Source: Candidatus Omnitrophota bacterium (GTDB lineage: Bacteria; Omnitrophota; Gorgyraeia; 2-01-FULL-45-10). Taken from it: a DNA stretch of 33,644 bases. Below are positions 148-16,376 of this stretch, piece after piece (the stretch's first letter is position 1; every line of letters starts with the position of its first letter). The translations under genes were made by a program, and so were the position numbers. The notes under the pieces were generated by a model, which was not told the origin of the DNA, did not search any database, and worked only from the letters and a program-made list of their open reading frames with translations. The DNA lies in NCBI GenBank assembly GCA_026387165.1, contig JAPLMG010000099.1:1-33644 (forward strand). The letters are read 5' to 3'.

Positions 148-3100
148 TTACAACGATCTCATCGCCAGAGATTGAGCAAGATGCGCGTTACGGGCGTCCT
201 CGGGGCTTACGCGGCCCGCCCTGGGTATCACTCTTATGATGCCCTGTTTCAGGTTATCGGCCGTTAACGGCTGGACCTGATCATCATCGGCGACATAATT
301 CAGAAAAGCATTTAAGAGAGTTAGGTTTACCCCATTTTCGCCTTCTATCTGGCCATAGGCTATCTTGAAAGCCAGATCATACAACATGACGAACGGCACA
401 TAATGCTCGTTTGGATCGAGCCGCACGTTCAGGACCGTGCCCGCCACGTCATTCAGGCTTGCATGAGCTATCCACGCGGCATATCCCTTTATCGCCTCGA
501 GGGTCGCGTCTCCCGCTATCGTCACGACGAAGGTATCTTTGTCATTCAACCTTCTCTTTGCCTCCTCGATCCGTTCGGCAAGCCTTTGCCCTTCGCCACG
601 CGCTATTATCAGCTTTCCGTCGTAATGTTCCTCAAGATACTCTTCCGTCGCCTGGGCGACGAGCCTGGCATCGTCCTCCATTTCCGGATTGAGCGCGGTA
701 TCATGGGCGATGATCACCGGCTTACGCCCTATATCGGACAGGACGATGGCGTTGATCGTCGTCTCCAACGCCGTCAGCTCCACCTTCATTCTCCGGACGA
801 CTTCCGGCAGAAGCGTTTTACCTGTTTTAGCGATAGCGGCGTCGACCATCCCGTCAACGGTTTCGCTGACCGGGAATTCGGCATATATTGAAGACGGCAC
901 GCGAGCTCCGGGGTCAGCGGGCGGCGCTATGATCGGCGCCCTCTCTTCTTCCGTGGGCGCGAAAGCCAGGATCTCCCTCTCGTAACCAAGCCCGGAGAGG
1001 GCTATCTTTATCCGGGCGGCATCTTTTCTCATGCCCTCAATAAGCCCATTCCGAATATCTTTTATAAAAGAAGGCATCTTATTCCCAAGGCCTGCCACGC
1101 CGCCGCCTATCACAATATTGTCCGCAAAGCCCTCTTTTCTCACCTGCCAATATCTTACGTATGCCGCAATGCCCATACCGAACTCTCTTGCCGCCGTTTT
1201 GATCAATCTCCTGGCGATCATATTGCCTTTGCCCGCGAGCCTGTTAATATCCGTTAACTCCAGCTCGGTCACGTCCTTCTTATCCGCCTGCCTCAATAAT
1301 TGCGCGCCGTCCACATCTTTGGAAATTTGCCGCCGCATTCTCTTGATAAGTGTGGGGCCCGCCATGCGCGACTCAAAATATTCTTCGCCTTCTTTCAAAC
1401 CCGGGATTTCTGCCGAGGCCCGATACACATATCTTCCGTCCGGGGACCTTATGACCATATGGCCTATCTCGCTGACCATATTTCCCATGATTTTGTCGCC
1501 AACATAAGACTTGCCTTCTCTTATTACGCCATTTCCTATGCCCGTGCCCCATGTAACGAATGTGATGTCGCCGGTATTCGGCATAGTGCCGCGCGCGCCC
1601 GCTTCTCCCAAAGCGCCCATGCTCGCGTCATGTCCCACTATTACAGGCACGTGCCTTGAATATCTTTCGAGGAAACGCTTCTCAAGCCGGCTCTTCAACG
1701 GAAAGCCGGAGAGCGGTATATTCTCTGTATTGCCTATAATGCCGGTCTCGGGATCTAAAGGCCCGGGCGAAGCTACGCCTATCTTTACCACCTTCTCCTC
1801 GCCTACGCGCTCTATTACCCGCTCTATCTGGGACCATAACGCCTCAAAGAGCGCTTCGGCCGACTCTTTCGGCGTCGATACTTCCGGGACTTTGGCAAGC
1901 AGATCCGCATTTAGATTAACCGCCGCCGCGCCTATCTTGGTTCCGCCCAGGCTTACGCCCACCGAAACGCCTAAAGAAGCCGTGTCGAGCGTCCGCTGAA
2001 TTTTCACTATATCGGCCACATTGCTCATCGCCACATCATTTGTAAATTCATTTAAGGCCGCTAAAATTATTTGGCGGGTATCGCTTTCTCTATCTATGCC
2101 TTCCCCGGGGGTATTCAGATATCCGACCGCTTCTCCGACAGTGCTGAATCTGCCGGCCAACGCCAGTATCTCTACATAAGCCTGTTCATAATCCGATTCG
2201 TCCTCGATAAAAGAGACTGGGCCTTCCCACACATTATTACGTTCAATGTAACTCAACACGGAATCTGTGGAAACAGGACTTACTATGTTTTTATTATTGG
2301 CTCTGACCGCTCTTCTAACGAAGATTATGAGCTTGTCCAAAGCCATAGGCGCAAAACCGGTGGAATGGGCGCCAGCCAGCGACACGGTAGCTTCGCCGAC
2401 AGCCCCTTTGGTTGTCGAATAAGGATAGACTCTTTTATTACTTATAGCGTTGACGATGCGCACTATGCCGCTATTCGTGCTTCCGTTTGTCGCGGCCGCT
2501 ACCTGCCGCTCCTTGGCGTCTCTAAGAAGATGAGCGGGCCGCTTTGCGCCTTTTGATTTTAAATTTCTCCGCGCCTCTTTCGCAAGATCAACGATAAAGG
2601 AGCCAGGCCCTTCTGCCGGCCCGCGCTCCTCATATGCGGCAAGGTATTCATAAACGTCTTTGACAACTTCGGGCTTCACATTTAAAAAACGCAATAGTTC
2701 TATTGTAATAAGAGAAGCCGTTGCCGCGTCATCATGCAGATCGGCGACGAAGATGCCGTTATCGCTGGCGTGGCCCCATATCGCCGTACCATCTCCAAGC
2801 GTATAGATCGGCTTTCCGCTTGTCCGCAGGATATGGATACGCGGCTGGTGTTCCGCCCCTTTCTCTATTCGCTCGTTTGTGCCCAATAGCAGATCTTGGT
2901 ACGCTTCTCTCAGGGATGACACCATAAAAAAAGATTTCAAAATTTTGCTTGTAGGCCCCGCGAGGCCGCCCATGTTGATCAGATTTTCTACCAGGCCTTG
3001 CCTGAAATAATTCTTTTCTATCCTTGTGTCGAGATCGTCATGAATGCCCTGATCCGTTATGCCTACCAGCGGCACGGGTCTTCCGGCGGCATCCAGGGTA

Positions 3101-3666
3101 AATGGCTTCGTATCCTTTGATGCAGTGGCTACTGTCACCTCCCGCGAGGCCTGAGCATCAAACAGTCTTTTAATAATGGCCGGGGCGAGAGCCTTGACGG
3201 CGGCCGCGTTCCTATTCAACGTCCCTATTTCTCTTTCAGAAACCCGGTAGCTCAGCTTTCCGCGCGCCGCGATATGCTTTTCTATAGACGAATCCACGTC
3301 GCTCATAAACAGGCGAAGCGCTGCCGCGGCCGTAAGCGGTATTCCCCTCGCGTCGGCTTTTTCACGCACTCTATCAAGCCATCTTTCTATAATATAGTCC
3401 GCCCAAGCCCTATTATCATCATCCGCACGCTCCTCTGCAAGCCTTCTAACGGGACGATTAAGAAGGCTTGTAAAGAGCGGCGGCGCAAGCATGCCGCCCT
3501 TCGCGCTTTCCGGTCCGGTGGTGATCCGGGTTTCTTTTTTGGTATCGAGCGCGGATGTCATCGGTATCTCTGCGAACGCGATGTTTGTAAAAATAAAAGA
3601 GCCGGCGACAATTGACAATATCGCCTTCTTAAATCGCATGCATGACGGTAAATTTGCAGGATCCAT
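148..3666 (-). CDS. Polyprotein E (1172 aa): leader, N-terminal region, ROK sugar kinase-like domain, C-terminal domain
   Basis: SD AGGAGG (3677-3682) 10 nt before ATG 3666. Leader MRFKKAILSIVAGSFIFTNIAFAEIP. Stop TAA; ends IIRVIPRAGRVSPEDARNAHLAQSLAMRSL*. Confidence 0.95.
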   Translation of the reverse strand: MDPANLPSCMRFKKAILSIVAGSFIFTNIAFAEIPMTSALDTKKETRITTGPESAKGGMLAPPLFTSLLNRPVRRLAEERADDDNRAWADYIIERWLDRVREKADARGIPLTAAAALRLFMSDVDSSIEKHIAARGKLSYRVSEREIGTLNRNAAAVKALAPAIIKRLFDAQASREVTVATASKDTKPFTLDAAGRPVPLVGITDQGIHDDLDTRIEKNYFRQGLVENLINMGGLAGPTSKILKSFFMVSSLREAYQDLLLGTNERIEKGAEHQPRIHILRTSGKPIYTLGDGTAIWGHASDNGIFVADLHDDAATASLITIELLRFLNVKPEVVKDVYEYLAAYEERGPAEGPGSFIVDLAKEARRNLKSKGAKRPAHLLRDAKERQVAAATNGSTNSGIVRIVNAISNKRVYPYSTTKGAVGEATVSLAGAHSTGFAPMALDKLIIFVRRAVRANNKNIVSPVSTDSVLSYIERNNVWEGPVSFIEDESDYEQAYVEILALAGRFSTVGEAVGYLNTPGEGIDRESDTRQIILAALNEFTNDVAMSNVADIVKIQRTLDTASLGVSVGVSLGGTKIGAAAVNLNADLLAKVPEVSTPKESAEALFEALWSQIERVIERVGEEKVVKIGVASPGPLDPETGIIGNTENIPLSGFPLKSRLEKRFLERYSRHVPVIVGHDASMGALGEAGARGTMPNTGDITFVTWGTGIGNGVIREGKSYVGDKIMGNMVSEIGHMVIRSPDGRYVYRASAEIPGLKEGEEYFESRMAGPTLIKRMRRQISKDVDGAQLLRQADKKDVTELELTDINRLAGKGNMIARRLIKTAAREFGMGIAAYVRYWQVRKEGFADNIVIGGGVAGLGNKMPSFIKDIRNGLIEGMRKDAARIKIALSGLGYEREILAFAPTEEERAPIIAPPADPGARVPSSIYAEFPVSETVDGMVDAAIAKTGKTLLPEVVRRMKVELTALETTINAIVLSDIGRKPVIIAHDTALNPEMEDDARLVAQATEEYLEEHYDGKLIIARGEGQRLAERIEEAKRRLNDKDTFVVTIAGDATLEAIKGYAAWIAHASLNDVAGTVLNVRLDPNEHYVPFVMLYDLAFKIAYGQIEGENGVNLTLLNAFLNYVADDDQVQPLTADNLKQGIIRVIPRAGRVSPEDARNAHLAQSLAMRSL
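151..890 (-). other. Module E3: C-terminal domain homologous to the C-terminus of ORF 10249..12855
   Basis: PVIIAHDTALNP...TFVVTIAGDATLEAIKGY...VPFVMLYDLAFKIAYG versus AVIIAHDTAVAP...YKVVTIAGNSTMNEVGQY...IPIIGLYEVALRIAYD. Confidence 0.8.
985..1985 (-). other. Module E2: ROK-family sugar kinase-like domain
   Basis: VSVGVSLGGTKIGAAAVNLNADLL, KIGVASPGPLDPETGIIGNTENIPLSGFPL, VIVGHDASMGALGEA, TFVTWGTGIGNGVI, NIVIGGGVAGLGNK. Confidence 0.85.
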
Positions 3667-3692
3667 ATCCTCTTCTCCTCCTGATTTCGTCT

Positions 3693-6600
3693 TTACGCGG
3701 ATCGTATGAATTCCAGAAGATTATCGTTGAGGCGCCTCAGTTCCGAAGAATCTTTTATCTCAACGGCCGGCAGGGTGAATATGAGCCTCTTGATAAGGTC
3801 TCTGATATCTTCGGGCATCGATTCGGTTATTTTAATTCCGGTAAGTATGGCATAGATCTTCAACAGGGCTTCCCTGTCGTTCCTCTGGACCGCCCTCAAT
3901 GCCGCTATGATGCCTTCAAGCTGTCTGAAGTTGCACTCGCCGAGCTCAGGCTTAAAGACGAGCGACAGGATATTGGCCTTCTCAAGTTGAGCCTGTTTTG
4001 CCGGATCTCTCGTAGCGACATCTATTATGGCGTCCGGATATTTCTTAAGTATACCGGCTATCGTATCTTCCAGCGGCTCCCACCCCTTCCCTATTACCAC
4101 CTTCTCTTTAAAATCATCGCCGCGGGTCAGCTTGTTTATAAGCGTTGCCAAGCCTGCCTGCTCTTCGGGAATAAGCATAGGATCTATTACGTGAAATACC
4201 ATCCTGCTTTTATCAATGGCCGCGGGCGCAAGTATCCTGTGCGCTTCATGGATAGCTTGCATCGACAACTCCGCCGCGCTTACATGCTCTTCCCCCGGCA
4301 GCGCGTTGAGGCTTGAACCAAGAGAGGTCAGACGCACGTCCGTCATCTTCTTCATATCGGCCGACGGCTGCTCGGCGTTGAGCAGGATAAGTTTTAAAAC
4401 CTGCCCCAGGTCCTTTGTTTTGCCGTTAAAAACGTAGTCCGTGGAATTTTTGGACCTCTTTTCCGAGGCCTTAAGCCTCGCCGCAAGTTCTTCGGATTTC
4501 TCTACAAGCGAAGGCAGGAGAGAGTCTGTTTTAGATATCCTGAAGTTTCCGGACAGTATAATATTCACATATTTGTTCTTCGAGTTAATGTTATATACCT
4601 GCCTGATAATATCGGACAGAGTAGTGCGAGTACCGCCGTGAAACAATATGAACGACTTTTTCACCAGATCGATGTCATGCGCGATACCTTCGTTCCTTAT
4701 TCCTACGCTTTCAATGGTATCGCGTATCCCGGCCACAACTTTATCCGCATCGGGCCCGTCTATATGAAGTATCGAAGGCCTGCTGTGCGCCCAGGCGGAC
4801 TTTGCCACGGCGAGCACCGCGCCGGCCACCGCAACGAGGCTCTTCTGGCGCGGCATCGCGGGCATGGCGACAGCGCCGAATTCTTCGAGGGGCTGGTCAT
4901 CCCTTAATATGGCTCCGGCCTTTATCTGATCGGATTCCGTAATGATCTGATCGAGCCGTTTTACAAGCGATTTACCCTCCGGCGTCTTTCCCGCTATAGT
5001 ACCTACGGGAACTAATTTTATCACGCCCCGGTCCGGATCCTGATAAAGATCGGAACACGCGACGCCCTGGCCGGTCGATCTCTCTTTTACTGCCTCTGCC
5101 GCTTTCTTCGCAAGACCGCGCGCGAAATTCCTTTCGCCTTCCGTAGGCACCGTTCCTCTCGGGGTAAATCCCAGGACCTCTATCTCAGGATGAAGCTCCT
5201 TCAGTATCGCGGCGATAAACTCCGCCGCGATACCCTGCGGAATTATAAGATTATGGTGAGCGTCTTCCCTGATATTTTTGATCGCCGCCGCAAGAACAGG
5301 ATTATCTTTAATGAGCCTGTCGTAATCTGGGTCATCCTTCGAAAGCTTGAACCCTTCAGCAGCCACTACGGTTACACCGCCGTAACGCCGCATTCTCGCG
5401 AGCGCCTGCTTCCTGATGCCCTCTATGCTTACAATATGTTCCGGTATAAGCGTCATTATGGTGGGCCTTGAGTACTCTATCTTCCTCTGAAGATGAGGTG
5501 AAAGTTCTTTAAAATTATCGGGATACCTGTTGGCCGCCTGAAGCGCGAGGCTGCCCATATTGCGGCCCATACCTTCGACTATAACGCACCTGTTGCTTCC
5601 CGGCACCGCGGCCGCGCGGTAGACCTCTTCCCTTGCGATCGCGACCGAGCTTAAGACGCCAAGAGCCGTGGTATTCATAGTATCATTATCTATCGTCTTC
5701 GGGATAGCTATCACGGTTATGCCGTACGGCTTCAAAAGTTCCGCCAGTTTTGCGGCTTCGTTGAGATGGTCATTACCGCCTATAACGACTATCGTGCGGG
5801 CGGTGGCGGCTATATTAGCTATCGCCTGTTTAGCTTCGTCCGACCCGTCCTCGAGGCTTTTTCTTGTGGACCCGAAATCGACGCTCGACCAGTAGGGCAT
5901 CCTCGCCGACATCTCCCTGCCCACCGGAACTATGTTGCGCGAGAAATCGCTCTTGATAAGCCCCTCCAGCCCCTTATTAACGCCCGCCACGGCTATACCC
6001 TGCGCGGCGAGCTCTGAAGAGAGATATCCTATGAACGGATTCAGCCCCGCGCAGTCCCCGCCGCTGACAAATACGAGGCATCTATTTTCCGCGCCTGTGT
6101 CGCCCCATGCGGGCCATGCATTCCTCGGATCCTTCAGGTCCGAAACAGCCTTGGCCGTTTGCCGCGAGTTCTCCTCTTCGACCTTACGGAGAGCGGCTAT
6201 TATGCTTCCGAAATGATGGCTATTTTCGCTTAACTCCTCGTAATTCAGATCGCTCCTGTCCCCTACCATGGCATCAAGCCGCTCGACAAAACCGTTGCCC
6301 ATCGATATCAATATGGCCCTGAACTCACTTCCGTCCGGATCGAGTTCGCGAAAATACCCTTTTAAGAAACTTTCCGCAAGCCCGGGGAAGTTAACGGTCC
6401 CCCACTCCCTCGTATCGTCAACGACATCTTCATACTCCCTTATCTTAAGCGCGTCGTATAGGACTCTCGAAACATCGAGAAACCTGTCGGCCGCCCTCTC
6501 CGCAAGAGAGTTCGTGGAGATATCCTGCGCGTCATTGAGATCGCGTAATATGATCCTCCATGCGAGATCATCGTCCGTCCTCAAGCCTATATTGCCTATG

Positions 6601-9600
6601 TGAGGCCAGCGATGAGAATACCCCTGGTCGTGAAAATATCTCAGCGAAAGACCGATCTTCTCATAGATAGATGGAAGGCCCGGACTGATATCTGTCGCTA
6701 ATCCTGCGGGTATATTTACAAGCGCTATACGGCCCGGTTCTACACCGTTGCGCCCAAACTGCAAAAATCCCAATCTATGGTCATCAAACTCCATTCCGCA
6801 AATGACGTATCCTACCGGCCCGTTTTTGTAGCGCAGATCCCTATACCGCCCAACCCCGATAGGAAGATCCGCTCCGCATTTCGATCCGTGGAATCTCTCC
6901 ATCAGCTCATATTCTGTCAGCGCTTCAGGATATAATAGCGATCCGAGCGGTCCCGGATGGCCCGGCCTCACAAGGATAGCGCCGCTCGAATAGCTCTCCA
7001 TGACCCGCCTGACCGAACCCCAGCCTTTATAATCCTTAACGCTGCGTTTATCTTTTTCTACAACCGGCCGCGCGCCTTTTATTCTTAAAAGCCCTAATGA
7101 CATGCCGTCTACCTCGATACGATCCCTGAGCCTGATGTAGACCGTCCGGCCTTCATCCGGCATAGTCTCGTCGTAAGAGACCCTTATCCGGCCTGCGGAG
7201 GAGTCGATTATTTTTTTCAATTTCTCCGGATTCGCGGCCGCAAGCACTTTCATCAGGTCACGCCTGTCTTTAGGCGCCATCCGGTCATATACCTGCGGCT
7301 TTATCCTCAGGGTGGACTTGGTATCGTTCTTCGCGGCGCCTACTTCGATCATCTTAAGAGGTATCCTGCAAAGATATGTGAGGAATTTATTTATCTGTGC
7401 CTTGTCCTGCCGGCTTAGCGGCGGAGATATGCTGAATATATAGTCCCTGAGCTCGTGAGGCTTCGCGCCCTTTATGCGGAGCGGATCCTTCAACAGCTCT
7501 TTATAGAACGCGTTTATGGCGCCGCTCGCGCTCCAAGTGTGCCTGGCTATCGTATCGAGCCAGAGCCTCGTCCATACGATCTCCGGCGAAGCGTTCTCCG
7601 GAAGCTTTATCCTTTTGAATAATCTCCACAGGTGGACGGTCTTGCGCTCCATCATGATCGATGATATGTAATCTATCTGAAGCGAAGAGAGCGCGGGATC
7701 GTACAGCCTTGGCAGGACCTTCCAGCTTTCGGCGCAGCCAAAGCTGCCCTGCCGCGTAAATTTGATGAACTCTCCGGACTTTTTAACGAAATATGCTTTA
7801 ATGTCCGGCCTTATGGAGTCCGAGATATTCCAAAGATTGGCGGCTTTAAAATCGTCCTCCTTATTGCCTATACCATCGACCGAGAAGAGGAGCGCCGAAG
7901 GCTTGCCCAAATTTGTCATCATCGAGCCGTACCTCCCGAAACCGGGGGCCTTATCGACTATGCCGAGCTTCCACAGATTCTCCTGCAGGCCGAACCACAG
8001 GTCGACATATCCGGCCGCTTCTGCGGTATCTGCCTGTGCGAGGACTTCGCCGAAAGACGTTATCCTGTTCTGGATCAGGACGCGCGGGATTATTTTACCG
8101 TCTATCTTTATATTCAGCTTTGCGAAGTTCACGAACGAGGTGGGGACCACAAAATCCCCTCCCACCAAAGCGAGAAAGCCTATGTCCGGCAGGGCCCTAT
8201 CCGTCTTGGGCGCCTTCACGACCATGCCGTTCTTAAGAAAGAACACATCGTACGACGTGCTCTCTATTTTGCGTTCATATTGAAGCTCACCGCCCGATGA
8301 GGACCTCCTCAACTCGTTCAATACGTAATCTTCTTCTATCCTATCGAGCTCTTCATAAAGCTGCTGCGGGTCGAGGCCCATCATCATAACAACGGGCGCG
8401 AATTTATCCTCGAGAAGCTGCCCTTTCCTGTAAAGAGAGAAGATGCTCTCGGCCCTCGATTCAGTGGTACCGACGAATTCGGCCCGGTCTCTCGCCGCGT
8501 ATATGAAAGGGTCTTCAAGCTTCTCTTTTCTCTGCATGAATAGATTGACATACTTGAGCGCGTCTTCCAGGGGCATCGGCCGGCCGTTCCTGGTTTCGGC
8601 CCTCGACCTCTCCCTCGCGAAACCCCTTTCAAGGCGTATCTCAAAGTTCGCGTCGATGAATAGCGATGTCGTATAAAGACTCGGCAGCCTCTTCTCCTGC
8701 GGGACATCAGGATCGTCGTAAAGCGACAGTATACCTTCGATTATAAATATGCCTTCTTCGTGCGGTATGCGCTCCTTTATCTTCCACGGCTTGCCGTTAA
8801 GCTTACCGTCCTTTCCTATATACCCGCCATTTGTAATAGTAACGGCTGTTTCGGCTATCAGCTCTCCGCTGTCCGGATCGATCATGTCTTTGGCGGGGTT
8901 GCCTTTATCGTCCATTATCCGGACGCTGCGGCCTCCGTTTTCCTCAAGAGGCCCGATACGCATAAACGTATCGATCATCCTTAATATGATCTCGCCGATC
9001 TTCGCTCCCTTTTCCACGCCAAGAGTGATTCCGAATTGTTCGACGGCCGCCGCCTCCTCAATGACCTTTCCGGCTTCATCGCGCACCGAAAGAACGGGGC
9101 CCTTCTGCGATTCAACTATATATATTTTTCTCCTGGGCCCGAATAATATGACCGGCGCGCCTTTATCGTCGAGCGTAAGTTTCAGCGTCCCCTTTGCCGT
9201 CTGGCCGTAGACCGGTTTCAGCAGGTCCTGCCCCCTTATAAACGCTTTCATCGAGCTGTTGAAGAGGCCCGCCTCAAATTTTTTCAGCACGTCCTCGGTA
9301 GTTTTTTTGGTCACAGGATCTATCTCCCTGTCGGAAGCCTGCAGAAGCCAGTCGTCGAAGTATATGATCCTGACGTTGGAAAATTCCTCAGACAGTTCCT
9401 TTTGGACGGTCGCGGCTATCGTAGTCTTGCCGGATGCCGCGCTGCCCGTGATGCCTATCGTGATAACGGAAGTTTTCTTATTTTGCCTGTCGGCGGCTCT
9501 GACCTTTCTGATCTTAGGAAACATCCTGCTATCAAAGATCTCGCGGTAGACCTGCTCTTCGTTCAGGCGCTCCCTCTCTTTGTGCGAGAAGCGCCTGTAT

Positions 9601-10220
9601 AGTCTAAAGGTCTTTTCCGAAGCCAGCCGGGCCATGGAGTCCCGCCAGATCGTGTCGAGACTTTCCACCCTGGCGCCCGGGTTTTTATGTTCCGGGGGCA
9701 CCGTTACAACATCTACCGCATAGAGGCTGCCCGAACCGCGCTCCAATAGCGTTTCACCGTCAGCGACCGGCATCCCGGACGGAAAACCCGAGGCCGAGTA
9801 TACCCTTGCCTCCATGGACCCGCCGTAAGGAATATAAAGAACTCCCGCCTTCGGGTCCATCCTGATATTCGCGACATCGAACCTGGCAAGCTCTTCGGCG
9901 AACGACGGTGAAACATCCGCGTACCGCATGATCTCGCGGACGATGTCGGCTGCGGGCATTCTCTCCCTGCCTACCAACAGGGAAGCGTAGAGGTCGAACG
10001 CTATCGACAGGAACTCCTTCTTCGATATGAGCGCGTGATTGAATTCTTCGGAATGTTCATCGGGGTGTGACGACCTGAAGACGGATGGCGCCGCAAGCGT
10101 GGATACTTCGTTTAAACTTTTAGGATCGGCGTAAACTTCCGGGCCGGAGATCTGGCTTAATAGAAAGGCCCAGACCAACAGCCCCGAAATGATATGTCGA
10201 AACATCTTGTTGCCGCTCAT
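3693..10220 (-). CDS. Polyprotein D (2175 aa): leader, uridine kinase-like, two kinase-fold-like regions, phosphofructokinase-like, C-terminal domain
   Basis: MFRHIISGLLVWAFLLSQISGPEVYADP leader; single ORF; stop TAA; ends RLIFTLPAVEIKDSSELRRLNDNLLEFIRSA*. Confidence 0.95.
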   Translation of the reverse strand: MSGNKMFRHIISGLLVWAFLLSQISGPEVYADPKSLNEVSTLAAPSVFRSSHPDEHSEEFNHALISKKEFLSIAFDLYASLLVGRERMPAADIVREIMRYADVSPSFAEELARFDVANIRMDPKAGVLYIPYGGSMEARVYSASGFPSGMPVADGETLLERGSGSLYAVDVVTVPPEHKNPGARVESLDTIWRDSMARLASEKTFRLYRRFSHKERERLNEEQVYREIFDSRMFPKIRKVRAADRQNKKTSVITIGITGSAASGKTTIAATVQKELSEEFSNVRIIYFDDWLLQASDREIDPVTKKTTEDVLKKFEAGLFNSSMKAFIRGQDLLKPVYGQTAKGTLKLTLDDKGAPVILFGPRRKIYIVESQKGPVLSVRDEAGKVIEEAAAVEQFGITLGVEKGAKIGEIILRMIDTFMRIGPLEENGGRSVRIMDDKGNPAKDMIDPDSGELIAETAVTITNGGYIGKDGKLNGKPWKIKERIPHEEGIFIIEGILSLYDDPDVPQEKRLPSLYTTSLFIDANFEIRLERGFARERSRAETRNGRPMPLEDALKYVNLFMQRKEKLEDPFIYAARDRAEFVGTTESRAESIFSLYRKGQLLEDKFAPVVMMMGLDPQQLYEELDRIEEDYVLNELRRSSSGGELQYERKIESTSYDVFFLKNGMVVKAPKTDRALPDIGFLALVGGDFVVPTSFVNFAKLNIKIDGKIIPRVLIQNRITSFGEVLAQADTAEAAGYVDLWFGLQENLWKLGIVDKAPGFGRYGSMMTNLGKPSALLFSVDGIGNKEDDFKAANLWNISDSIRPDIKAYFVKKSGEFIKFTRQGSFGCAESWKVLPRLYDPALSSLQIDYISSIMMERKTVHLWRLFKRIKLPENASPEIVWTRLWLDTIARHTWSASGAINAFYKELLKDPLRIKGAKPHELRDYIFSISPPLSRQDKAQINKFLTYLCRIPLKMIEVGAAKNDTKSTLRIKPQVYDRMAPKDRRDLMKVLAAANPEKLKKIIDSSAGRIRVSYDETMPDEGRTVYIRLRDRIEVDGMSLGLLRIKGARPVVEKDKRSVKDYKGWGSVRRVMESYSSGAILVRPGHPGPLGSLLYPEALTEYELMERFHGSKCGADLPIGVGRYRDLRYKNGPVGYVICGMEFDDHRLGFLQFGRNGVEPGRIALVNIPAGLATDISPGLPSIYEKIGLSLRYFHDQGYSHRWPHIGNIGLRTDDDLAWRIILRDLNDAQDISTNSLAERAADRFLDVSRVLYDALKIREYEDVVDDTREWGTVNFPGLAESFLKGYFRELDPDGSEFRAILISMGNGFVERLDAMVGDRSDLNYEELSENSHHFGSIIAALRKVEEENSRQTAKAVSDLKDPRNAWPAWGDTGAENRCLVFVSGGDCAGLNPFIGYLSSELAAQGIAVAGVNKGLEGLIKSDFSRNIVPVGREMSARMPYWSSVDFGSTRKSLEDGSDEAKQAIANIAATARTIVVIGGNDHLNEAAKLAELLKPYGITVIAIPKTIDNDTMNTTALGVLSSVAIAREEVYRAAAVPGSNRCVIVEGMGRNMGSLALQAANRYPDNFKELSPHLQRKIEYSRPTIMTLIPEHIVSIEGIRKQALARMRRYGGVTVVAAEGFKLSKDDPDYDRLIKDNPVLAAAIKNIREDAHHNLIIPQGIAAEFIAAILKELHPEIEVLGFTPRGTVPTEGERNFARGLAKKAAEAVKERSTGQGVACSDLYQDPDRGVIKLVPVGTIAGKTPEGKSLVKRLDQIITESDQIKAGAILRDDQPLEEFGAVAMPAMPRQKSLVAVAGAVLAVAKSAWAHSRPSILHIDGPDADKVVAGIRDTIESVGIRNEGIAHDIDLVKKSFILFHGGTRTTLSDIIRQVYNINSKNKYVNIILSGNFRISKTDSLLPSLVEKSEELAARLKASEKRSKNSTDYVFNGKTKDLGQVLKLILLNAEQPSADMKKMTDVRLTSLGSSLNALPGEEHVSAAELSMQAIHEAHRILAPAAIDKSRMVFHVIDPMLIPEEQAGLATLINKLTRGDDFKEKVVIGKGWEPLEDTIAGILKKYPDAIIDVATRDPAKQAQLEKANILSLVFKPELGECNFRQLEGIIAALRAVQRNDREALLKIYAILTGIKITESMPEDIRDLIKRLIFTLPAVEIKDSSELRRLNDNLLEFIRSA
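4965..6085 (-). other. pfk-like: Module D4: phosphofructokinase-like domain
   Basis: LVFVSGGDCAGLNPFIGYL, VVIGGNDHLNEAAKLAELL, IAIPKTIDNDTMNTTALG, CVIVEGMGRNMGSLALQAA, LGFTPRGTVPT. Confidence 0.85.
6390..6990 (-). other. Module D3: protein kinase/phosphotransferase-like fold
   Basis: GLSLRYFHDQGYSHRWPHIGNIGLRTDDDLAWRIILRDLNDAQDI resembles catalytic-loop and DxD regions, with the HxD aspartate replaced. Confidence 0.4.
8370..9475 (-). other. Module D1: uridine kinase-like P-loop kinase with long insertion
   Basis: SVITIGITGSAASGKTTIAATVQ (Walker A), IIYFDDWLLQAS, GIFIIEGILSLYDD. Confidence 0.75.
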
Positions 10221-10248
10221 TAATATGGTATATGCGCAAGTTTAAGCG

Positions 10249-12855
10249 TTACAGCGATATAAGGGCCTGTTGGGCTGCCTTATAAGCTGCCGCGGCTTCT
10301 GAAGGATTGACCGGCACTATCTTAGGCAGTATCATAAGAACGCCTCTTGATAACAATGCCTCGACATCATCTTTGGTGAACGGTCTGTTGTCAGGGTTTA
10401 TGGCTATCCTGTTTAAAGACAGGAGGACGTCATCGATCGAAGAGTCGTAGGCTATTCTCAAGGCCACTTCGTACAGCCCTATTATGGGTATGTACCTGTT
10501 GTCCGGATTCTGTATATTGAGGACCTTACCTATCCTGGTGAGGTACTGGCCCACTTCATTCATAGTGCTGTTTCCCGCGATAGTCACCACCTTGTAAGGA
10601 ATGCCTGCTGCCTGCAGCTCCTGCGCGGCCTGAGCGATATTATCCAATAGCTTCCTGCCCGTTGCCCTGATGTCTACCAGCTTGCCTTCAAGATATTTGT
10701 TTATCGGCCGCTCACCAGCCTGCGCCACCTGTCCGGGCGCGACCGCCGTATCATGCGCGATTATGACCGCCCTGTTGTCGAGCGCGCCTCTCAGTGCCAA
10801 TGAAGCGAGATACTTCTGCAACGAATCTCTTTCCGGTATAGTCGAAACCTGATAGATCTGCTCGGCCGTCACCTTTCCGGCGCCTTCCCCGGCGGGATAC
10901 TTCTTCTCGCCGTCCCGGCCGGCCCTGGATAGCCGCGCAAGCTCTCCGGTAAAGCTTTCATAGAACGCCTTTATCAGCGCTTTTACATCCTCATCGGCCT
11001 CATTGCACTCAAATAGTACGGTCGGCGACACTTCGGCCATGCGCCTTATATTCGGCATGGTCATGGCATCATTGGTCTGGTGCACATTTGCGCCCTCGAC
11101 AGTAGCGCCGTCCCCTTTTCTCGGCGGAACGAGCTGCCTCTTCTCGACGGCCTTCCCGCCTCCGGCATCGACCTCGATATCAACCGTGTTCTTAAATCCC
11201 CTGCCGGTCACCTTATTGTCGATGAGCCTTCTCGTATTTATGAAGATGTTTACTGTCTTGTCGCCTAAAAGCGGCCCGGGCGTATTTGATTCCGCCTGAT
11301 TGGCAAGATTCCCCTCAAGCCCCTTATGCGACCAGAGCGGGAAGAGGGCAGTCTGCACGATCCACCCCTGCCTGCCAAGTTCTGATCCGTAGGCTTCTCT
11401 TCTCAGGCCCCCGACAAATTCCTGCAGGCCCTCACTGCCGACGAACAGGTTTAGCCTGTCGCGCCCTTTTAATTTCCCGGCGAGCTGCGCGGCGATATCT
11501 TTGCCCAGCTGTCTTGCCTGCGTTGCCGTATTCATGGCATTTTGCTTTCCGTCAGCGCCTATGGCGGGAGATCCGGGATTGCCCGAGCTAACCAGAAGCT
11601 CTGTTTTGCCCTGACCTATAAGATCCTGCGCATACTTTCTTTCATTGTCTCTCCACCCGGCAACTCTGTCTGACGTATATTCGCGGACCTTCTTCACGTT
11701 AGGGTTAGAATTGGCATCGACCCTGAGAAGAGAGGTAAAGACCGTCACCAGATCCGTCCATAATATATCCAATGCCGCCTGCTGGTTTGGCGTCATGCCG
11801 ACGTCAATTACCTTGCCTGTGCCATCGGTGATCTTTGTGCCTTCCACGGTAAGGATCATCACGGGCATCGCTTCAGCGACGCTCTTCACCCTTTTCCTGT
11901 CCTTGTCATATGTGGGCGATGATCTGTCCAGAAGCGCCATGCCGACACATTTCTTACCGGCCGGACTGCTCACAAGCGTTTCCAGTACTGCCGGCGGTTC
12001 ATAGACCTCATCGGCAAGATCATGAATACCCATGGAAATAACATCTCTTTTGTTCGAGCCTTCCATTATATACTGTTCCCATTCGGTTCCCGCGCGGCGC
12101 AGGGACTCCGTATTTGTCATGAATACGATATGCTCGGCGCCAAGCAAGTACATGGCGCCATGCAGGAATCTCCCTGCGCTGACGGGAAGCGATCCATCCT
12201 CATCGGAGAAATCATTCGCCCGGTCGAATTTGTCATGGAGCCTGGCAAATTCTACGGAATCCATTGAAGGCAGGAAGATGCCAGCTATAGTCTGTACCGT
12301 ATAGTAGATGGAGGTCTTTCTATGCATGTTTCTGCCGCCTATATCGGGGCTGAGCTCTATGACTAAGGGCGCGACGGTGGTCTTTTCGGTCTTGCTTCTC
12401 GCTTGCGCCGCCGCTATTGCTATGTCCTTACTGGGCCCGCCGTTAACTATCGCTATACGCTTATTAAATCCTTCCTGCAGTGAACGGCTTGCCACCTCCA
12501 GGCCTTCCCAGGTCGCCCCGGATCGTGTTATGTCCACAAAGATCGTGGAATCCGGTTTGATCTTGCCTTCGCTGTAGAGGCGCGCGAACTCCCTCGCTGT
12601 CGCCGCGTGATACCAGACCGGCGCGCCGGCCGGCTTATTTTCATTGTACATCTTAATCAACGACCACATGAACTGATCATTGGCGCCTATTCCGTTGGTC
12701 ACTATAGCTTTGAGATTTTGGCCATTCGGGCCGAACGCCTGCTCTATGAAAGAGCGGATCTTTCCGTACCATTCAGGTTTAAAATAGTTTTCGAAAAATT
12801 GCAAAACAGTCTGCTTAGTCCCGGTCCCGCGGTAGTTATATCCTCCCCGCGCCAT
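10249..12855 (-). CDS. Polyprotein C, part 3: glucose-6-phosphate isomerase-like domain plus C-terminal domain
   Basis: ADMARGGYNYRGTGTKQTVLQFFENYFKPEWYG...TIFVDITRSGATWEGLEVASRSL...LFVGSEGLQEFVGGLRREAYGSELGRQGW. Frame is open upstream of the annotated Met, no SD precedes it. Ends VLMILPKIVPVNPSEAAAAYKAAQQALISL*. Confidence 0.8.
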   Translation of the reverse strand: MARGGYNYRGTGTKQTVLQFFENYFKPEWYGKIRSFIEQAFGPNGQNLKAIVTNGIGANDQFMWSLIKMYNENKPAGAPVWYHAATAREFARLYSEGKIKPDSTIFVDITRSGATWEGLEVASRSLQEGFNKRIAIVNGGPSKDIAIAAAQARSKTEKTTVAPLVIELSPDIGGRNMHRKTSIYYTVQTIAGIFLPSMDSVEFARLHDKFDRANDFSDEDGSLPVSAGRFLHGAMYLLGAEHIVFMTNTESLRRAGTEWEQYIMEGSNKRDVISMGIHDLADEVYEPPAVLETLVSSPAGKKCVGMALLDRSSPTYDKDRKRVKSVAEAMPVMILTVEGTKITDGTGKVIDVGMTPNQQAALDILWTDLVTVFTSLLRVDANSNPNVKKVREYTSDRVAGWRDNERKYAQDLIGQGKTELLVSSGNPGSPAIGADGKQNAMNTATQARQLGKDIAAQLAGKLKGRDRLNLFVGSEGLQEFVGGLRREAYGSELGRQGWIVQTALFPLWSHKGLEGNLANQAESNTPGPLLGDKTVNIFINTRRLIDNKVTGRGFKNTVDIEVDAGGGKAVEKRQLVPPRKGDGATVEGANVHQTNDAMTMPNIRRMAEVSPTVLFECNEADEDVKALIKAFYESFTGELARLSRAGRDGEKKYPAGEGAGKVTAEQIYQVSTIPERDSLQKYLASLALRGALDNRAVIIAHDTAVAPGQVAQAGERPINKYLEGKLVDIRATGRKLLDNIAQAAQELQAAGIPYKVVTIAGNSTMNEVGQYLTRIGKVLNIQNPDNRYIPIIGLYEVALRIAYDSSIDDVLLSLNRIAINPDNRPFTKDDVEALLSRGVLMILPKIVPVNPSEAAAAYKAAQQALISL
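10885..10914 (-). repeat. GEKxYPAG linker (DGEKKYPAGE) in polyprotein C part 3
   Basis: +strand ttccccggcgggatacttcttctcgccgtc; between GPI-like domain and C-terminal domain. Confidence 0.9.
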
Positions 12856-12893
12856 GTCGGCGCCGACCGCAGACTGATACTGCTGAAGCGCTA

Positions 12894-15800
12894 TCAGCTG
12901 CTTAAGGTCGGCCGTGCTGCCGTCAGGGACAAGGAGCTTTTTCCGTATGTCAGGGACAACTGCTCTATAAGTCCGCTCACATCTACGGAATCGAGAATGA
13001 TCCTCTCCAGCCGCAATGGCGTCAAGTCCGTCAATCTCAGGCCCTTTATTTGGATGCTTATGAATTTCTCCAGCAGGACTCTGCTGAACAACGCATCTGT
13101 CAGTATATATGTTTCGTCCCCGGTCACTTCCGCTAAACCGGCCTGCGCCATGTTCTTTAAAGCCGCTGTTCTTTTGATCCCGACCGATTCGGCAAAATTG
13201 GTCAGAAGCGTATTTGTATCAATTTTTGACCTTACCGCATCCCGGACCCTGGCCTTGTCCATTTTGAGAACGGACGCCAATCTTGAAATATCCTGTTCAA
13301 ATGTCATGCTCGCTATCTCACTTGTCAGCGGCATTACCTTCAATAACTCAGGTAAATATCCGAGCGAGCTCTTAGCCTTACCGTCCCCTCTATTGATGCT
13401 TACAACAAGTCCGTAGATAGAAGCCCTGCGCACATCTACGCCGCTATCACTCAAATATTTGACAGCCGCGTCGTCGACAGTCAGAGGGGCCGTGCTCTTC
13501 TTGGCCATGTTGGCCGGATCGCCCGCGGCCCGCGTAGTGAGATAGATCCTGTCGAATAAGAGCGTGGCGAACTGCGCCGACTGCGCCGTTACCCGGCTCA
13601 GAAGTTCCGGATCATTCCTAATCGCCCACTCATAGCGCTCGACCCCATAGGGCACGGCTATAGAGCGCTCTTCGATATATTCGTCTATGAGCAGCTTAAA
13701 TACGCTGAGGCCCAGCTTCTCTATGCCATCGGGCTTGTTACGCAGCGCAATGCCGACCCTTGACGCGATATCACTCTTGTAATCGCCTTTACGCGTCAGG
13801 TCATCATACTCTTTGTCGTAGTCAAGCAATTTTATATAGTCCACCTGGTCGCTTATGAGCGCCGTATCAAATAGTTCGGCGAATTTGGCGCCGCTTATCT
13901 TCTCGATAAAATTGATCAGCTCGCTGAGGCTCAATCCTACAGTCTCGTTGTCCTCGTTGGGATTAAATACGAAGATGCTCCTCACGCCCCTCGCCCTGGC
14001 GGCTTTGATCGCCTCTACTACGCCATCGCATAACAGGTGGGAACAGAGCGATGTAAAGAAGCTGCCCGGCCCGGTCAATATATAGCCGCCGCTCGAGACG
14101 TTATTGATCATTTCAACGGCCACCTGGTTGGTATCGTCCCGGGATATCGATTTCGCTTCCGCGGAGGGAGCGGAAAATACCCGGTGCTCTTCCCTTACTT
14201 CATTGCCTCCCTCGGCGCTCACGACTATATTCTCTTCTTTAACTTCGGCAAAACCATACTCCACTATCTTTGAGAGATTTACCGTTTCGGTAACGTGCGT
14301 CTGCATGGCGATAAAGCGCGGGACAAAGAGAGCGCCCAGGCCCTCGCCGTTGAAACCGAGCACTTTGTCCTTATAACCACATCCCGGATTGTCATTCTTT
14401 AGCCTTATCTTTTTATCGTCCTTAACAAGATATGTGACATCCCCGGACTCGCTTTCGTCGACCACCCAGTGGTCCCCGTTAAGCGAAAAATACGCCTTGC
14501 CCTCTTTGTCGAGGCCGACCTCTATCGCGTTTAAGATATTTCCGTGGCTGTCCAGTGTCTTGATCAGTATATCCTGTCCTCTCGATAAAGTCTTTATAAG
14601 GGGTGTGCCTGAAATCCGGCTCGCCTCGTCCGTACCGTCAGGATTTCTGATAACCATGCTCGGGCCATGCCTCTGGTCTATGGTCACCACAAGGCTATTG
14701 CCGTTATTTTCGGTATGAAAGCGCGTGTTCCTCTGTATCTTTTCATCGAGGCTGATATTTTCCCACCACGCAAGAACGTTGTCCTGATATCTTGCATATA
14801 CAACCGAGGGCTTAAAACTCGACATGCTGACCTGCCCGTTCGTGATGCCTACGGCCTTCGCAAGTCTGTTAACAGCCATTTGGTATCTGCGCATCTTATC
14901 TTTCGTATCAACGGCATTCCTGCCCTCCGGTAACCGGAGGTCCCTTACGAAGACACCCTCGTCATATAAAACCGCCAGGAGAAGCAGGTTTCGTATGCTC
15001 TGGTTCTGTTTTAGGAGCGTCTTCATGTTAAAGATCGGTTTGCCGTCGAACCCCGGGATACCTTTATCCACTATGTCGGCAAGATTTAACAGGTTCGCGC
15101 TGAACGTCAAAAAATCCGCGCTTAAATTTCTCTCGTGAGACCTTCTGATGCTTTCGAGATTTCTAGGCTTTCTCTGCTCCAGGGCCGCGGCAAGAAGCGC
15201 TTCCGCTCCGTCATATCGCATGTCAAGATTTACTGCCTGGGAAGTCTTCGCCAGCCCTATACCGGCCAGCGTCACCTTTATTTTCTCGAGGCATTCTCCC
15301 GCCTTTTCGAAATCTCCCGCATCCATCGCCGCAAGCGCCTGACCGAATAAATTATCCCTTATCTTCGCCTGCCGTAAAGCTATTGCCATGACATCTCTTA
15401 AGCTCATCCCGAGAAGCTCTTCTTCGCTCAGGCCCATATACCCGATCTTTATCCTTCCGCTGTCATCAAGCATGGTAAATATCTTGTCTGCTTTAAGGAA
15501 GCTGTTAAAGAGAGAATTTACCTGGTCGCCAAGAGGAGGCGTTATCCCATAACCGTTCTCTCTGAGCGCATTTATAATGTGCTGCGTGGCGCCCCCGTCA
15601 TCGACGTTGGTAACAAGCGCGTTGATCGAAAGGCCCGGATTGAGGCCCAAAAGGATCGGAGCCCATAACCTGGATGCCGAGCCCCCGGAAAGCAGAAGGA
15701 CGTCCGAAGAAAAGTCAGGCGGACCCTGCGCCGTTTGGCTTACGCCTGAAAGCTTCTGGCGGAGTTTCTTTGCATCGTCGCCGAACCTGCCTATAACGAT

Positions 15801-16376
15801 ATCGACAACGCTCGCCTTGTTCCTGGCGGCCTCTTCCAGCAGGTCTCTTTGCAATTCTCTTTCATTTCCGCCGTAAACATCCAATAGCCTGCCGTAATTA
15901 TCTGTTTTTTGAAGCGCTTCGCTGAATTCATTTCCGGAGGCTCCGGCCGGATAACTCTTCTCTCCATCCTTCGGAGGTTCGGAGACGGCTGTGCCGCCGC
16001 TGAGGCGCGCGTAAAGGATGTGGAAAGCGCTCTTGAATTCAGCGTTGCCGGTTATGGCTGCCGCTATTTCCTTCGCACGGGCTTGCGGCTGATCGGCACT
16101 GATTAAAGCGGCCTCCATCGCGCCCCTGTACGCATCGAGCATGATCGCTTCGTTCTGAGCGTATCCTCTCTCGCTCGCAATCATGAGGGTCTTATCGAGC
16201 CACCTCTGGACCCCAAAAGACTCCCAGCCTCGCTCAACCCGCCGCTCTCTCGCTATGATCTCTTTTATAAGAGCTTCAAGCTGATCCTTATCTACGCCGT
16301 CAACCTCTGAAAGGATCACCTTTATGCGCTCCTGGCTTATGCCGACGAGCCTCGATAACAGTATCGGGGCGAGCAT
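12894..16376 (-). CDS. Polyprotein C, part 2: YvcK/CofD-like domain with large insertion
   Basis: VLLLSGGSASRLWAPILLGLNPGLSINALVTNVDDGGATQHIINAL and ILTGPGSFFTSLCSHLLCDGVVEAIKAARARGVRSIFVFNPNEDNETVGLSLSELINFIE. Same frame as ORF 16428..17969, separated by TAG 16428-16430; no leader; lacks the shared C-terminal tail. Confidence 0.85.
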   Translation of the reverse strand: MLAPILLSRLVGISQERIKVILSEVDGVDKDQLEALIKEIIARERRVERGWESFGVQRWLDKTLMIASERGYAQNEAIMLDAYRGAMEAALISADQPQARAKEIAAAITGNAEFKSAFHILYARLSGGTAVSEPPKDGEKSYPAGASGNEFSEALQKTDNYGRLLDVYGGNERELQRDLLEEAARNKASVVDIVIGRFGDDAKKLRQKLSGVSQTAQGPPDFSSDVLLLSGGSASRLWAPILLGLNPGLSINALVTNVDDGGATQHIINALRENGYGITPPLGDQVNSLFNSFLKADKIFTMLDDSGRIKIGYMGLSEEELLGMSLRDVMAIALRQAKIRDNLFGQALAAMDAGDFEKAGECLEKIKVTLAGIGLAKTSQAVNLDMRYDGAEALLAAALEQRKPRNLESIRRSHERNLSADFLTFSANLLNLADIVDKGIPGFDGKPIFNMKTLLKQNQSIRNLLLLAVLYDEGVFVRDLRLPEGRNAVDTKDKMRRYQMAVNRLAKAVGITNGQVSMSSFKPSVVYARYQDNVLAWWENISLDEKIQRNTRFHTENNGNSLVVTIDQRHGPSMVIRNPDGTDEASRISGTPLIKTLSRGQDILIKTLDSHGNILNAIEVGLDKEGKAYFSLNGDHWVVDESESGDVTYLVKDDKKIRLKNDNPGCGYKDKVLGFNGEGLGALFVPRFIAMQTHVTETVNLSKIVEYGFAEVKEENIVVSAEGGNEVREEHRVFSAPSAEAKSISRDDTNQVAVEMINNVSSGGYILTGPGSFFTSLCSHLLCDGVVEAIKAARARGVRSIFVFNPNEDNETVGLSLSELINFIEKISGAKFAELFDTALISDQVDYIKLLDYDKEYDDLTRKGDYKSDIASRVGIALRNKPDGIEKLGLSVFKLLIDEYIEERSIAVPYGVERYEWAIRNDPELLSRVTAQSAQFATLLFDRIYLTTRAAGDPANMAKKSTAPLTVDDAAVKYLSDSGVDVRRASIYGLVVSINRGDGKAKSSLGYLPELLKVMPLTSEIASMTFEQDISRLASVLKMDKARVRDAVRSKIDTNTLLTNFAESVGIKRTAALKNMAQAGLAEVTGDETYILTDALFSRVLLEKFISIQIKGLRLTDLTPLRLERIILDSVDVSGLIEQLSLTYGKSSLSLTAARPTLSS
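15942..15968 (-). repeat. GEKxYPAG linker (DGEKSYPAG) in polyprotein C part 2
   Basis: +strand tccggccggataactcttctctccatc; between N-terminal helical region and CofD-like domain. Confidence 0.9.

What the first reader, a model, noticed from the sequence alone, without database searches (positions are those of the whole stretch)
985..12960. Exported-looking upper-glycolysis module set: GPI-, PFK- and ROK-kinase-like domains in one operon
Consecutive polyproteins C, D and E carry GPI-like, PFK-like and ROK sugar kinase-like domains, equivalents of the first three glycolytic steps, each fused behind a Sec-like leader. These families are normally cytosolic and free-standing. Extracytoplasmic sugar-phosphate metabolism would need external ATP or PPi, so the enzymes may act inside prey or host cells, or on surface polymers, or the leader may be a membrane anchor.
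Basis: partly seen in the sequence, partly recalled or inferred. Interest (0 to 1): 0.85.

Follow-up and report, generated by a model that had tools for sequence, protein, structure and literature searches.

The report
Exported sugar-phosphate enzyme polyproteins in Omnitrophota
An uncultured bacterium of the phylum Omnitrophota encodes very long, export-marked proteins that string together enzyme-like domains for handling sugar phosphates, a chemistry that normally happens only inside cells, so either it works outside the cell (perhaps on another cell's contents) or old enzymes have been given a new outside job.

Summary
The GPI-, PFK- and ROK-like domains are real. PFK and ROK pass Pfam. The GPI-like domain fails the Pfam PGI model, but motif order, profile comparison and a predicted double-SIS fold identify it.

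The PFK and ROK proteins have Sec-type leaders. The GPI protein does not: it is the tail of a polyprotein broken by an in-frame TAG and a frameshifting deletion. Its leader lies 5 kb upstream in P0005; a relative carries the whole unit as one 3,678-aa ORF.

The organism is an Omnitrophota MAG. The window is an array of polyproteins built as leader, variable enzyme modules, shared C-terminal tag. At least 13 relatives share the scheme, with phosphoglucomutase, PFK, a second unrelated GPI fold, transaldolase, glycogen synthase and PTS EI-HPr modules.

Most active-site motifs are kept and the GPI-like domain is under purifying selection. ROK copies lost a key Asp, so a literal glucokinase-GPI-PFK pathway is not established. 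Cysteine depletion supports export.

Best reading: exported multi-enzyme sugar-phosphate polyproteins; site of action, substrates and energy donor unknown. Giant Omnitrophota proteins are known; I found no description of this layout in the papers searched.

The parts
148..3666 (-). P0001, 1172 aa: leader, ROK-like domain, C-terminal domain and tag ('protein E')
3571..3666 (-). Leader of P0001, AFA site
1009..1962 (-). ROK-like domain; Asp->Ser in DxGGT, zinc Cys lost, catalytic Asp and ExGH kept
151..765 (-). C-terminal domain and tag of P0001
3693..10220 (-). P0002, 2175 aa: leader, uridine-kinase-like, protein-kinase-like by eye, PFK-like, tag by eye ('protein D')
10128..10220 (-). Leader of P0002, VYA site
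9207..9458 (-). PRK/uridine-kinase-like segment of P0002
5091..6080 (-). PFK-like domain with GGD, GGND, PKTIDND and MGR motifs (PPi type)
10249..12855 (-). P0003, 868 aa, no leader: GPI-like double-SIS domain, second domain, linker, C-terminal domain ('protein C')
11566..12855 (-). GPI-like domain
10912..11565 (-). Second conserved domain following the GPI-like domain in the closest homologues
10892..10911 (-). GEKKYPA linker, one of 16 in this genome
10252..10824 (-). C-terminal domain and tag of P0003
12918..12930 (-). Hand-over point between the P0004 and P0003 frames; about 56 residues present in relative G012 are missing here (out-of-frame deletion or assembly error)
12894..16376 (-). 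P0004, 1160 aa, middle part of the broken polyprotein; CofD/YvcK-like domain at 13803-14228; GEKSYPA linker
16428..16430 (-). In-frame TAG where five relatives have a Glu codon; separates P0005 from P0004
16428..17969 (-). P0005, 513 aa: leader (17898-17969, AFA site) and conserved N-terminal domain (weakly EreA/HopBA1-like)
18106..33015 (-). P0006, 4969 aa polyprotein: leader, P0005-like domain, RmlD, PRK-like, UDPGP, DHQS/sugar-phosphate-cyclase-like, HAD, histidine phosphatase, PanB, C-terminal tag; six GEKxYPA linkers plus two diverged copies, none inside a recognised domain
33084..33644 (-). P0007: C-terminal end of another polyprotein that continues on contig C62; tag by eye

Best explanation
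The window is part of a large Omnitrophota array of exported multi-enzyme polyproteins. Each intact unit has a cleavable Sec-type signal peptide, often a conserved ~480-aa N-terminal domain, a changeable set of enzyme modules drawn largely from sugar-phosphate, nucleotide-sugar and glycogen chemistry, and a common C-terminal domain ending in a ~40-residue tag. I propose four steps. (1) Sec carries the chain over the inner membrane. (2) The C-terminal tag sorts or anchors it in the envelope or outward. (3) Linkers keep the modules apart or let them be cut apart. (4) The GPI-, PFK- and related modules act on sugar phosphates outside the producer's cytoplasm, most plausibly those released from or reached inside another cell, with PPi rather than ATP for the PFK step. 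Shown: the parts, the leaders, the tag, homology, selection on the GPI-like domain, mostly kept active-site motifs. Inferred: export, sorting by the tag, catalysis, site of action. The ROK module is probably changed or inactive as a glucokinase.
For: Leaders with AxA-type sites in nearly all polyproteins with an identifiable start, none in free-standing homologues. Cysteine depleted to 0.38% against 1.18% in neighbouring enzymes (p 9e-8) and 0.48% against 0.97% pooled within the same enzyme families (p 0.002). Shared C-terminal tag at the very end of polyproteins from many genomes and, at E<0.1, only at polyprotein ends among 525 collected 3'-complete frames. GPI-like domain 50-60% identical across families of the class, dN/dS 0.11 for G145/G162. 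Two unrelated GPI folds in equivalent polyproteins (double-SIS here, cupin PF06560 in L110). Motifs read by eye as kept in PGM, cupin GPI, transaldolase, glycogen synthase, PTS EI and HPr modules. Housekeeping PFKs and a ROK exist separately in the same genome.
Against: No localisation or activity data. Sugar phosphates, PPi, PEP and ATP are normally cytosolic, and intact-looking PTS EI-HPr modules fit a cytosolic place at least as well. Polyprotein ROKs lost the DxGGT Asp; the GPI-like domain lacks PGI's C-terminal Lys and Gln. The GPI unit in this genome is split by a stop and a frameshift. No secretion machinery recognising the tag was identified. The cysteine controls are few and the sequences related, so p values are indicative only; PFK alone shows no cysteine difference. 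The tag HMM was trained on relatives of the proteins it finds.
Confidence: 0.45

Rival explanations
1. Exported pseudo-enzymes: old metabolic folds kept as binding or structural modules (adhesins, sugar-phosphate or polymer binders, decoys) in surface polyproteins, with little or no catalysis.
For: D->S in the ROK DxGGT motif in four of five polyprotein copies and loss of zinc Cys; GPI-like domain lacks the C-terminal Lys/Gln; PFK Mg-site Asp is Asn in most of the window's closest copies; modules strongly diverged from free-standing copies (23-31% for PFK); many polyproteins have few recognisable domains.
Against: Motifs read as kept in PGM, cupin GPI, transaldolase, glycogen synthase, EI and HPr modules; PFK keeps PKTIDND and MGR; two unrelated GPI folds recur, which binding alone does not obviously predict.
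Confidence: 0.25
2. Membrane-tethered cytoplasmic enzymes: the N-terminal hydrophobic segment is an uncleaved anchor and the modules face the cytoplasm, forming a channelled sugar-phosphate assembly at the inner membrane.
For: Cytosolic-type cofactors (PPi, ATP, PEP) would be available there; PTS EI-HPr modules look intact; no second membrane segment is needed.
Against: Basic residues precede the hydrophobic core, which by the positive-inside rule puts the C-terminal mass outside; AxA-type sites follow in nearly all; cysteine depletion.
Confidence: 0.15
3. Moonlighting predation proteins: the modules are exported glycolytic-type enzymes whose useful activity is non-metabolic, such as growth inhibition or membrane effects on other cells, as proposed for Myxococcus GAPDH and PGK.
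For: Purified M. xanthus GAPDH and PGK inhibited E. coli growth (PMC10141889); giant-protein peptides increased in V. archaeovorus attached to larger cells (PMC10066038).
Against: Those enzymes are leaderless, single-domain and housekeeping; here dedicated diverged copies with leaders are used. No toxicity data.
Confidence: 0.08
4. Decaying or mis-assembled genes: the array is degenerating or badly assembled and the domains have no present function.
For: P0005/P0004/P0003 are split by a stop and a deletion; two of the 13 related loci (L105, L114) are also broken; the MAG is fragmented, 77% complete and 5.5% contaminated.
Against: Eight related loci have intact ORFs of 1648-3848 aa from leader to tag; dN/dS 0.05-0.2; conserved motifs across families.
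Confidence: 0.07

Closest known systems
Giant ORFs of Omnitrophota (Velamenicoccus archaeovorus 39,678-aa protein; Seymour et al. 2023, PMC10066038; West-Roberts et al. preprint as cited in PMC12057145)
   Same: Same phylum; very long proteins with export or surface features and a predation context.
   Different: Described as having few annotated domains, adhesin or carbohydrate-degradation domains and many transmembrane helices. Here one N-terminal leader, almost no other hydrophobic segments, cytosol-type sugar-phosphate enzyme modules and a common C-terminal tag.
Free-standing PGI, PPi-type PFK and ROK kinases of Omnitrophota
   Same: Homologous folds and most active-site motifs.
   Different: The free-standing copies are ~300-550 aa, leaderless and match the families far better; polyprotein copies are diverged, leader-linked and share their own substitutions.
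Substrates of signal-peptide-plus-C-terminal-signal secretion routes (for example type IX secretion; from general knowledge)
   Same: Signal peptide at one end, conserved sorting-type region at the other, variable cargo between.
   Different: The C-terminal region is modelled as alpha/beta plus a short tail, not the Ig-like type IX domain; no machinery identified; no profile search of the tag was run.
Secreted moonlighting glycolytic enzymes of predators (Myxococcus xanthus GAPDH/PGK, PMC10141889)
   Same: Glycolytic-type enzymes studied for action on other cells.
   Different: Those are ordinary cytosolic enzymes without leaders or fusion.

Membership tests
PGI (PF00342) | Match to the family model above cut-off | tested here: not met
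   No PF00342 match for P0003 or elsewhere in the own genome
PGI superfamily (double-SIS sugar-phosphate isomerases) | Homology and fold | tested here: met
   hhalign prob 94.4, E 8.5e-8; Foldseek PGI E 8.5e-8, GlmS E 9.8e-8, so PGI and GlmS-type isomerases are not told apart by fold
PGI | Catalytic set: GGR Arg, Glu in ExxGK, His, C-terminal Gln and Lys | tested here: inconclusive
   Arg and Glu kept; His plausible in the window's subclade only; Gln->Asn and Lys->Arg
PFK (PF00365) | Family match and GGD, TIDND, MGR motifs | tested here: met
   112 bits against cut-off 30.9; motifs kept, Mg-site Asp is Asn
PPi-dependent PFK | Asp and Lys signature in place of Gly/Gly (from general knowledge) | tested here: met
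   GGND and PKTIDND; donor use itself not testable here
ROK (PF00480) | Family match | tested here: met
   93 bits against cut-off 22.9
ROK glucokinase | DxGGT Asp, catalytic Asp, ExGH, zinc CxCGxxGC | tested here: not met
   Asp->Ser and zinc Cys lost; catalytic Asp and ExGH kept; far below the TIGR00744 cut-off
Sec/SPase I substrates | Basic n-region, hydrophobic core, AxA site | tested here: met
   P0001, P0002, P0005, P0006 by simple rules, not SignalP; P0003 and P0004 not met
Sec/SPase I substrates | Actual export and cleavage | not testable with these tools
   Needs experiment
EreA/TIKI/ChaN-like superfamily (P0005 domain) | Fold and conserved His/Glu motifs | tested here: inconclusive
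   No Foldseek hit below E 0.001; EreC E 0.35, HopBA1 E 1.0 prob 0.41; conserved VEGA and GGFH stretches
Type IX secretion substrates | Ig-like C-terminal domain | not tested
   Model of the P0003 C-terminal region is alpha/beta; no family search of the tag was run
Omnitrophota giant/large-ORF proteins | Very long ORFs in Omnitrophota | tested here: met
   4969 aa here, 6014 aa elsewhere in the genome; relatives titled Omnitrophota; below the 20-kb threshold of PMC10066038

The most novel reading that the evidence does not exclude
Omnitrophota use a dedicated export route, marked by a signal peptide and a new C-terminal sorting tag, to place multi-enzyme sugar-phosphate polyproteins outside their cytoplasm, where they run sugar-phosphate chemistry on the contents of other cells.
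Probability: 0.25. Interest if true: 0.92.

Novelty: new variant of a known kind. Interest (0 to 1): 0.74.

Why it matters
Giant proteins of Omnitrophota are known but mostly without annotated function. This layout gives them a testable logic: a leader for export, exchangeable enzyme modules, a common C-terminal tag. If the enzymes work outside, it would be phosphorylated-sugar metabolism outside a bacterium's own cytoplasm, and would bear on how these tiny bacteria exploit other cells. If they do not, it is a large natural set of metabolic enzymes converted to another extracellular role. Either way the tag is a handle for finding the secretion machinery.

Tried and rejected
Taking P0005, P0004 and P0003 as separate genes: rejected; they match one ORF in relatives, only P0005 has a leader, only P0003 has the tag, and the tagged ORFs of the window stop with TAA while the two internal stops are TAG and TGA.

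TAG recoding: not pursued; one in-frame TAG at a Glu position is better explained as mutation or assembly error.

GEKxYPA linker as a phylum-wide processing signal: rejected; 16 copies in this genome, near background (0-2) in 291 others. It stays unexplained as a species-specific motif. Codons vary, so it looks conserved as protein rather than as a recent DNA repeat.

The 70,450-aa ORF in G145: about 24,000 residues of it are N, so that length is not real evidence; at most about 46,000 aa are open sequence.

PDB sequence search for P0003 gave nothing. Foldseek for P0005 gave no significant hit. Literature search for the linker string found nothing relevant.
Full report
WHAT IS THERE. The window is a whole contig (C293) of a 1.93-Mb, 77%-complete MAG. 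A genome scan with the conserved N-terminal domain returned 13 relatives, all titled Candidatus Omnitrophota or Omnitrophica. All long genes lie on the minus strand; in order of transcription: P0007 (partial), P0006 (4969 aa), P0005, P0004, P0003, P0002, P0001. Contig C62 ends in 141 bases identical to the start of this array, so the array continues there.

THE THREE DOMAINS. PFK and ROK are clear Pfam matches. The GPI-like domain is not found by the Pfam PGI model in the window or anywhere in this incomplete genome. It is nevertheless a PGI relative: 13 homologues from Omnitrophota polyproteins align with free-standing Omnitrophota PGI at probability 94.4, E 8.5e-8, with GIGG, SxSGxTxE, GGR and QxxxExxGK in order, and the predicted structure matches PGI and GlmS isomerase domains. 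A second conserved domain follows it in the closest homologues.

LEADERS. P0001, P0002, P0005 and P0006 start with a basic n-region, a hydrophobic core and an AxA-type site. So do almost all related polyproteins, while free-standing PFK, ROK and PGI of the same lineages do not. P0003 and P0004 have none. Relatives read straight through both junctions: Glu in place of the TAG between P0005 and P0004, and about 56 extra residues where the P0004 and P0003 frames meet. G012 has the set in one 3,678-aa ORF. So the GPI-like protein belongs to a leader-bearing unit that is broken in this assembly, by real mutations or by assembly error.

COMMON END. The polyproteins share a C-terminal domain and, more widely, a last ~40 residues of the form hhxhLPKxxPxD...YxxAxxxLxxL/A. 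A model trained on seven relatives finds it at the extreme end of P0003, P0001, P0006 and more than twenty polyproteins of other genomes, and not in P0004 or P0005; P0007 and P0002 score only E 0.78 and 1.7 and are assigned by eye. I read it as a sorting or assembly tag; that is inference.

CARGO. P0006 carries RmlD, PRK-like, UDP-sugar-pyrophosphorylase-like, DHQS/sugar-phosphate-cyclase-like, HAD, histidine-phosphatase and PanB modules. Other arrays carry phosphoglucomutase (C62, G012, G002, L104, L106, L112, L113), PFK, ROK, glycogen synthase (L106), transaldolase plus the unrelated cupin-type GPI (L110), nucleotidyltransferase (L109), PTS EI and HPr (L103) and 2-hydroxyacid dehydrogenase. 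Sugar-phosphate chemistry is the commonest theme, though GNAT, HEAT and other modules also occur and many stretches match nothing. I did no formal enrichment test.

ACTIVE SITES. PFK keeps GGD, PKTIDND and MGR with the PPi-type residues; the Mg-site Asp is Asn. The GPI-like domain keeps the phosphate-binding motifs, the GGR Arg and the catalytic Glu, has a His in the window's subclade at a plausible place, and has Arg and Asn where PGI has Lys and Gln. ROK keeps the catalytic Asp and ExGH but has Ser for the DxGGT Asp in four of five polyprotein copies, and no zinc cysteines. By eye, the PGM, cupin GPI, transaldolase, glycogen synthase, EI and HPr modules keep their key residues. The meaning of these residues rests on general knowledge of the families.

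SELECTION AND ORIGIN. GPI-like domains of G145 and G162 give dN/dS 0.11 (dS 1.56); window comparisons are saturated at synonymous sites but pN is 0.26-0.31. The window PFK is closer to five polyprotein PFKs of other genomes (34-38%) than to the genome's own free PFKs (23-28%), so these are old paralogues rather than recent captures.

EXPORT. Besides leaders, cysteine is depleted: 0.38% in 32 polyproteins against 1.18% in 22 neighbouring enzymes, and 0.48% against 0.97% pooled within the three enzyme families, though PFK alone shows no difference. Controls are few and sequences related, so these are indications.

HOW IT MOST LIKELY WORKS. Sec export, sorting by the tag, sugar-phosphate chemistry outside the producer's cytoplasm. 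I put about 0.8 on passage over the inner membrane, about 0.55 on catalysis by at least the GPI-like or PFK-like module, and about 0.3 on action on another cell's contents; these are judgements, not calculations. Main rivals are exported pseudo-enzymes and membrane-tethered cytoplasmic enzymes.

WHAT IS KNOWN. Giant Omnitrophota proteins are published and tied to predation or adhesion (PMC10066038; PMC12057145). In the open-access papers I could search I found no account of leader-plus-tag polyproteins with sugar-phosphate enzyme modules; preprints and most subscription papers were not searchable, so novelty is provisional.

Noticed in passing
window 10892, 15946, 20597, 22073, 23225, 26360, 27248, 29006; also contigs C62, C199, C264: GEKxYPA(G) linker peptide, 16 copies in this genome and near background in 291 other genomes of the phylum; the linker-type sites of P0006 lie outside recognised domains; synonymous codons vary. 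Function unknown.
   Followed up: partly
C-termini of P0001, P0002, P0003, P0006, P0007 and of polyproteins in L029-L042 and L102-L113: Shared terminal tag (hhxhLPKxxPxD...AxxxLxxL/A), candidate sorting signal.
   Followed up: partly
window 16431-17807 and 31465-32814; own-genome contigs C251, C68, C81, C7: Conserved N-terminal domain after the leader, six copies in this genome in ORFs of up to 6014 aa; weak EreA/HopBA1-like fold hits, so a hydrolase or processing role is possible.
   Followed up: partly
window 22270-23112 (P0006 aa 3302-3582): DHQS/sugar-phosphate-cyclase-like module with GVGTKNAVN in place of the usual DHQS stretch, near HAD, UDPGP and kinase modules, reminiscent of cyclitol pathways. 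From memory, not tested.
   Followed up: no
L110 6409-12030: Leader-bearing polyprotein with transaldolase and cupin-type GPI (PF06560): a non-homologous isomerase in the same setting as the double-SIS one.
   Followed up: partly
L103 3-7949: Polyprotein fragment with PTS EI and HPr modules whose active-site residues look intact.
   Followed up: partly
L102, L103, L105, L106, L108, L110, L111: A polyprotein ending in the ...AA variant of the tag lies upstream of the P0005-type polyprotein in many relatives: conserved order, as P0006 before P0005 here.
   Followed up: no
L029, L038, L042 next to the polyprotein: A small membrane protein and a secreted protein resembling a glycoamylase-type hydrolase (by eye) follow the polyprotein in three genomes; not searched against families.
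   Followed up: no
G145:C2 (L131-L144): Reported 70,450-aa open frame contains about 72 kb of N; the rest is still a giant ORF with a GPI-like domain.
   Followed up: partly
ends of contigs C62 and C199 (L035, L036): Near-identical duplicated polyprotein ends (94% over 158 codons, dN/dS about 0.2); the MAG breaks at this repeat.
   Followed up: partly
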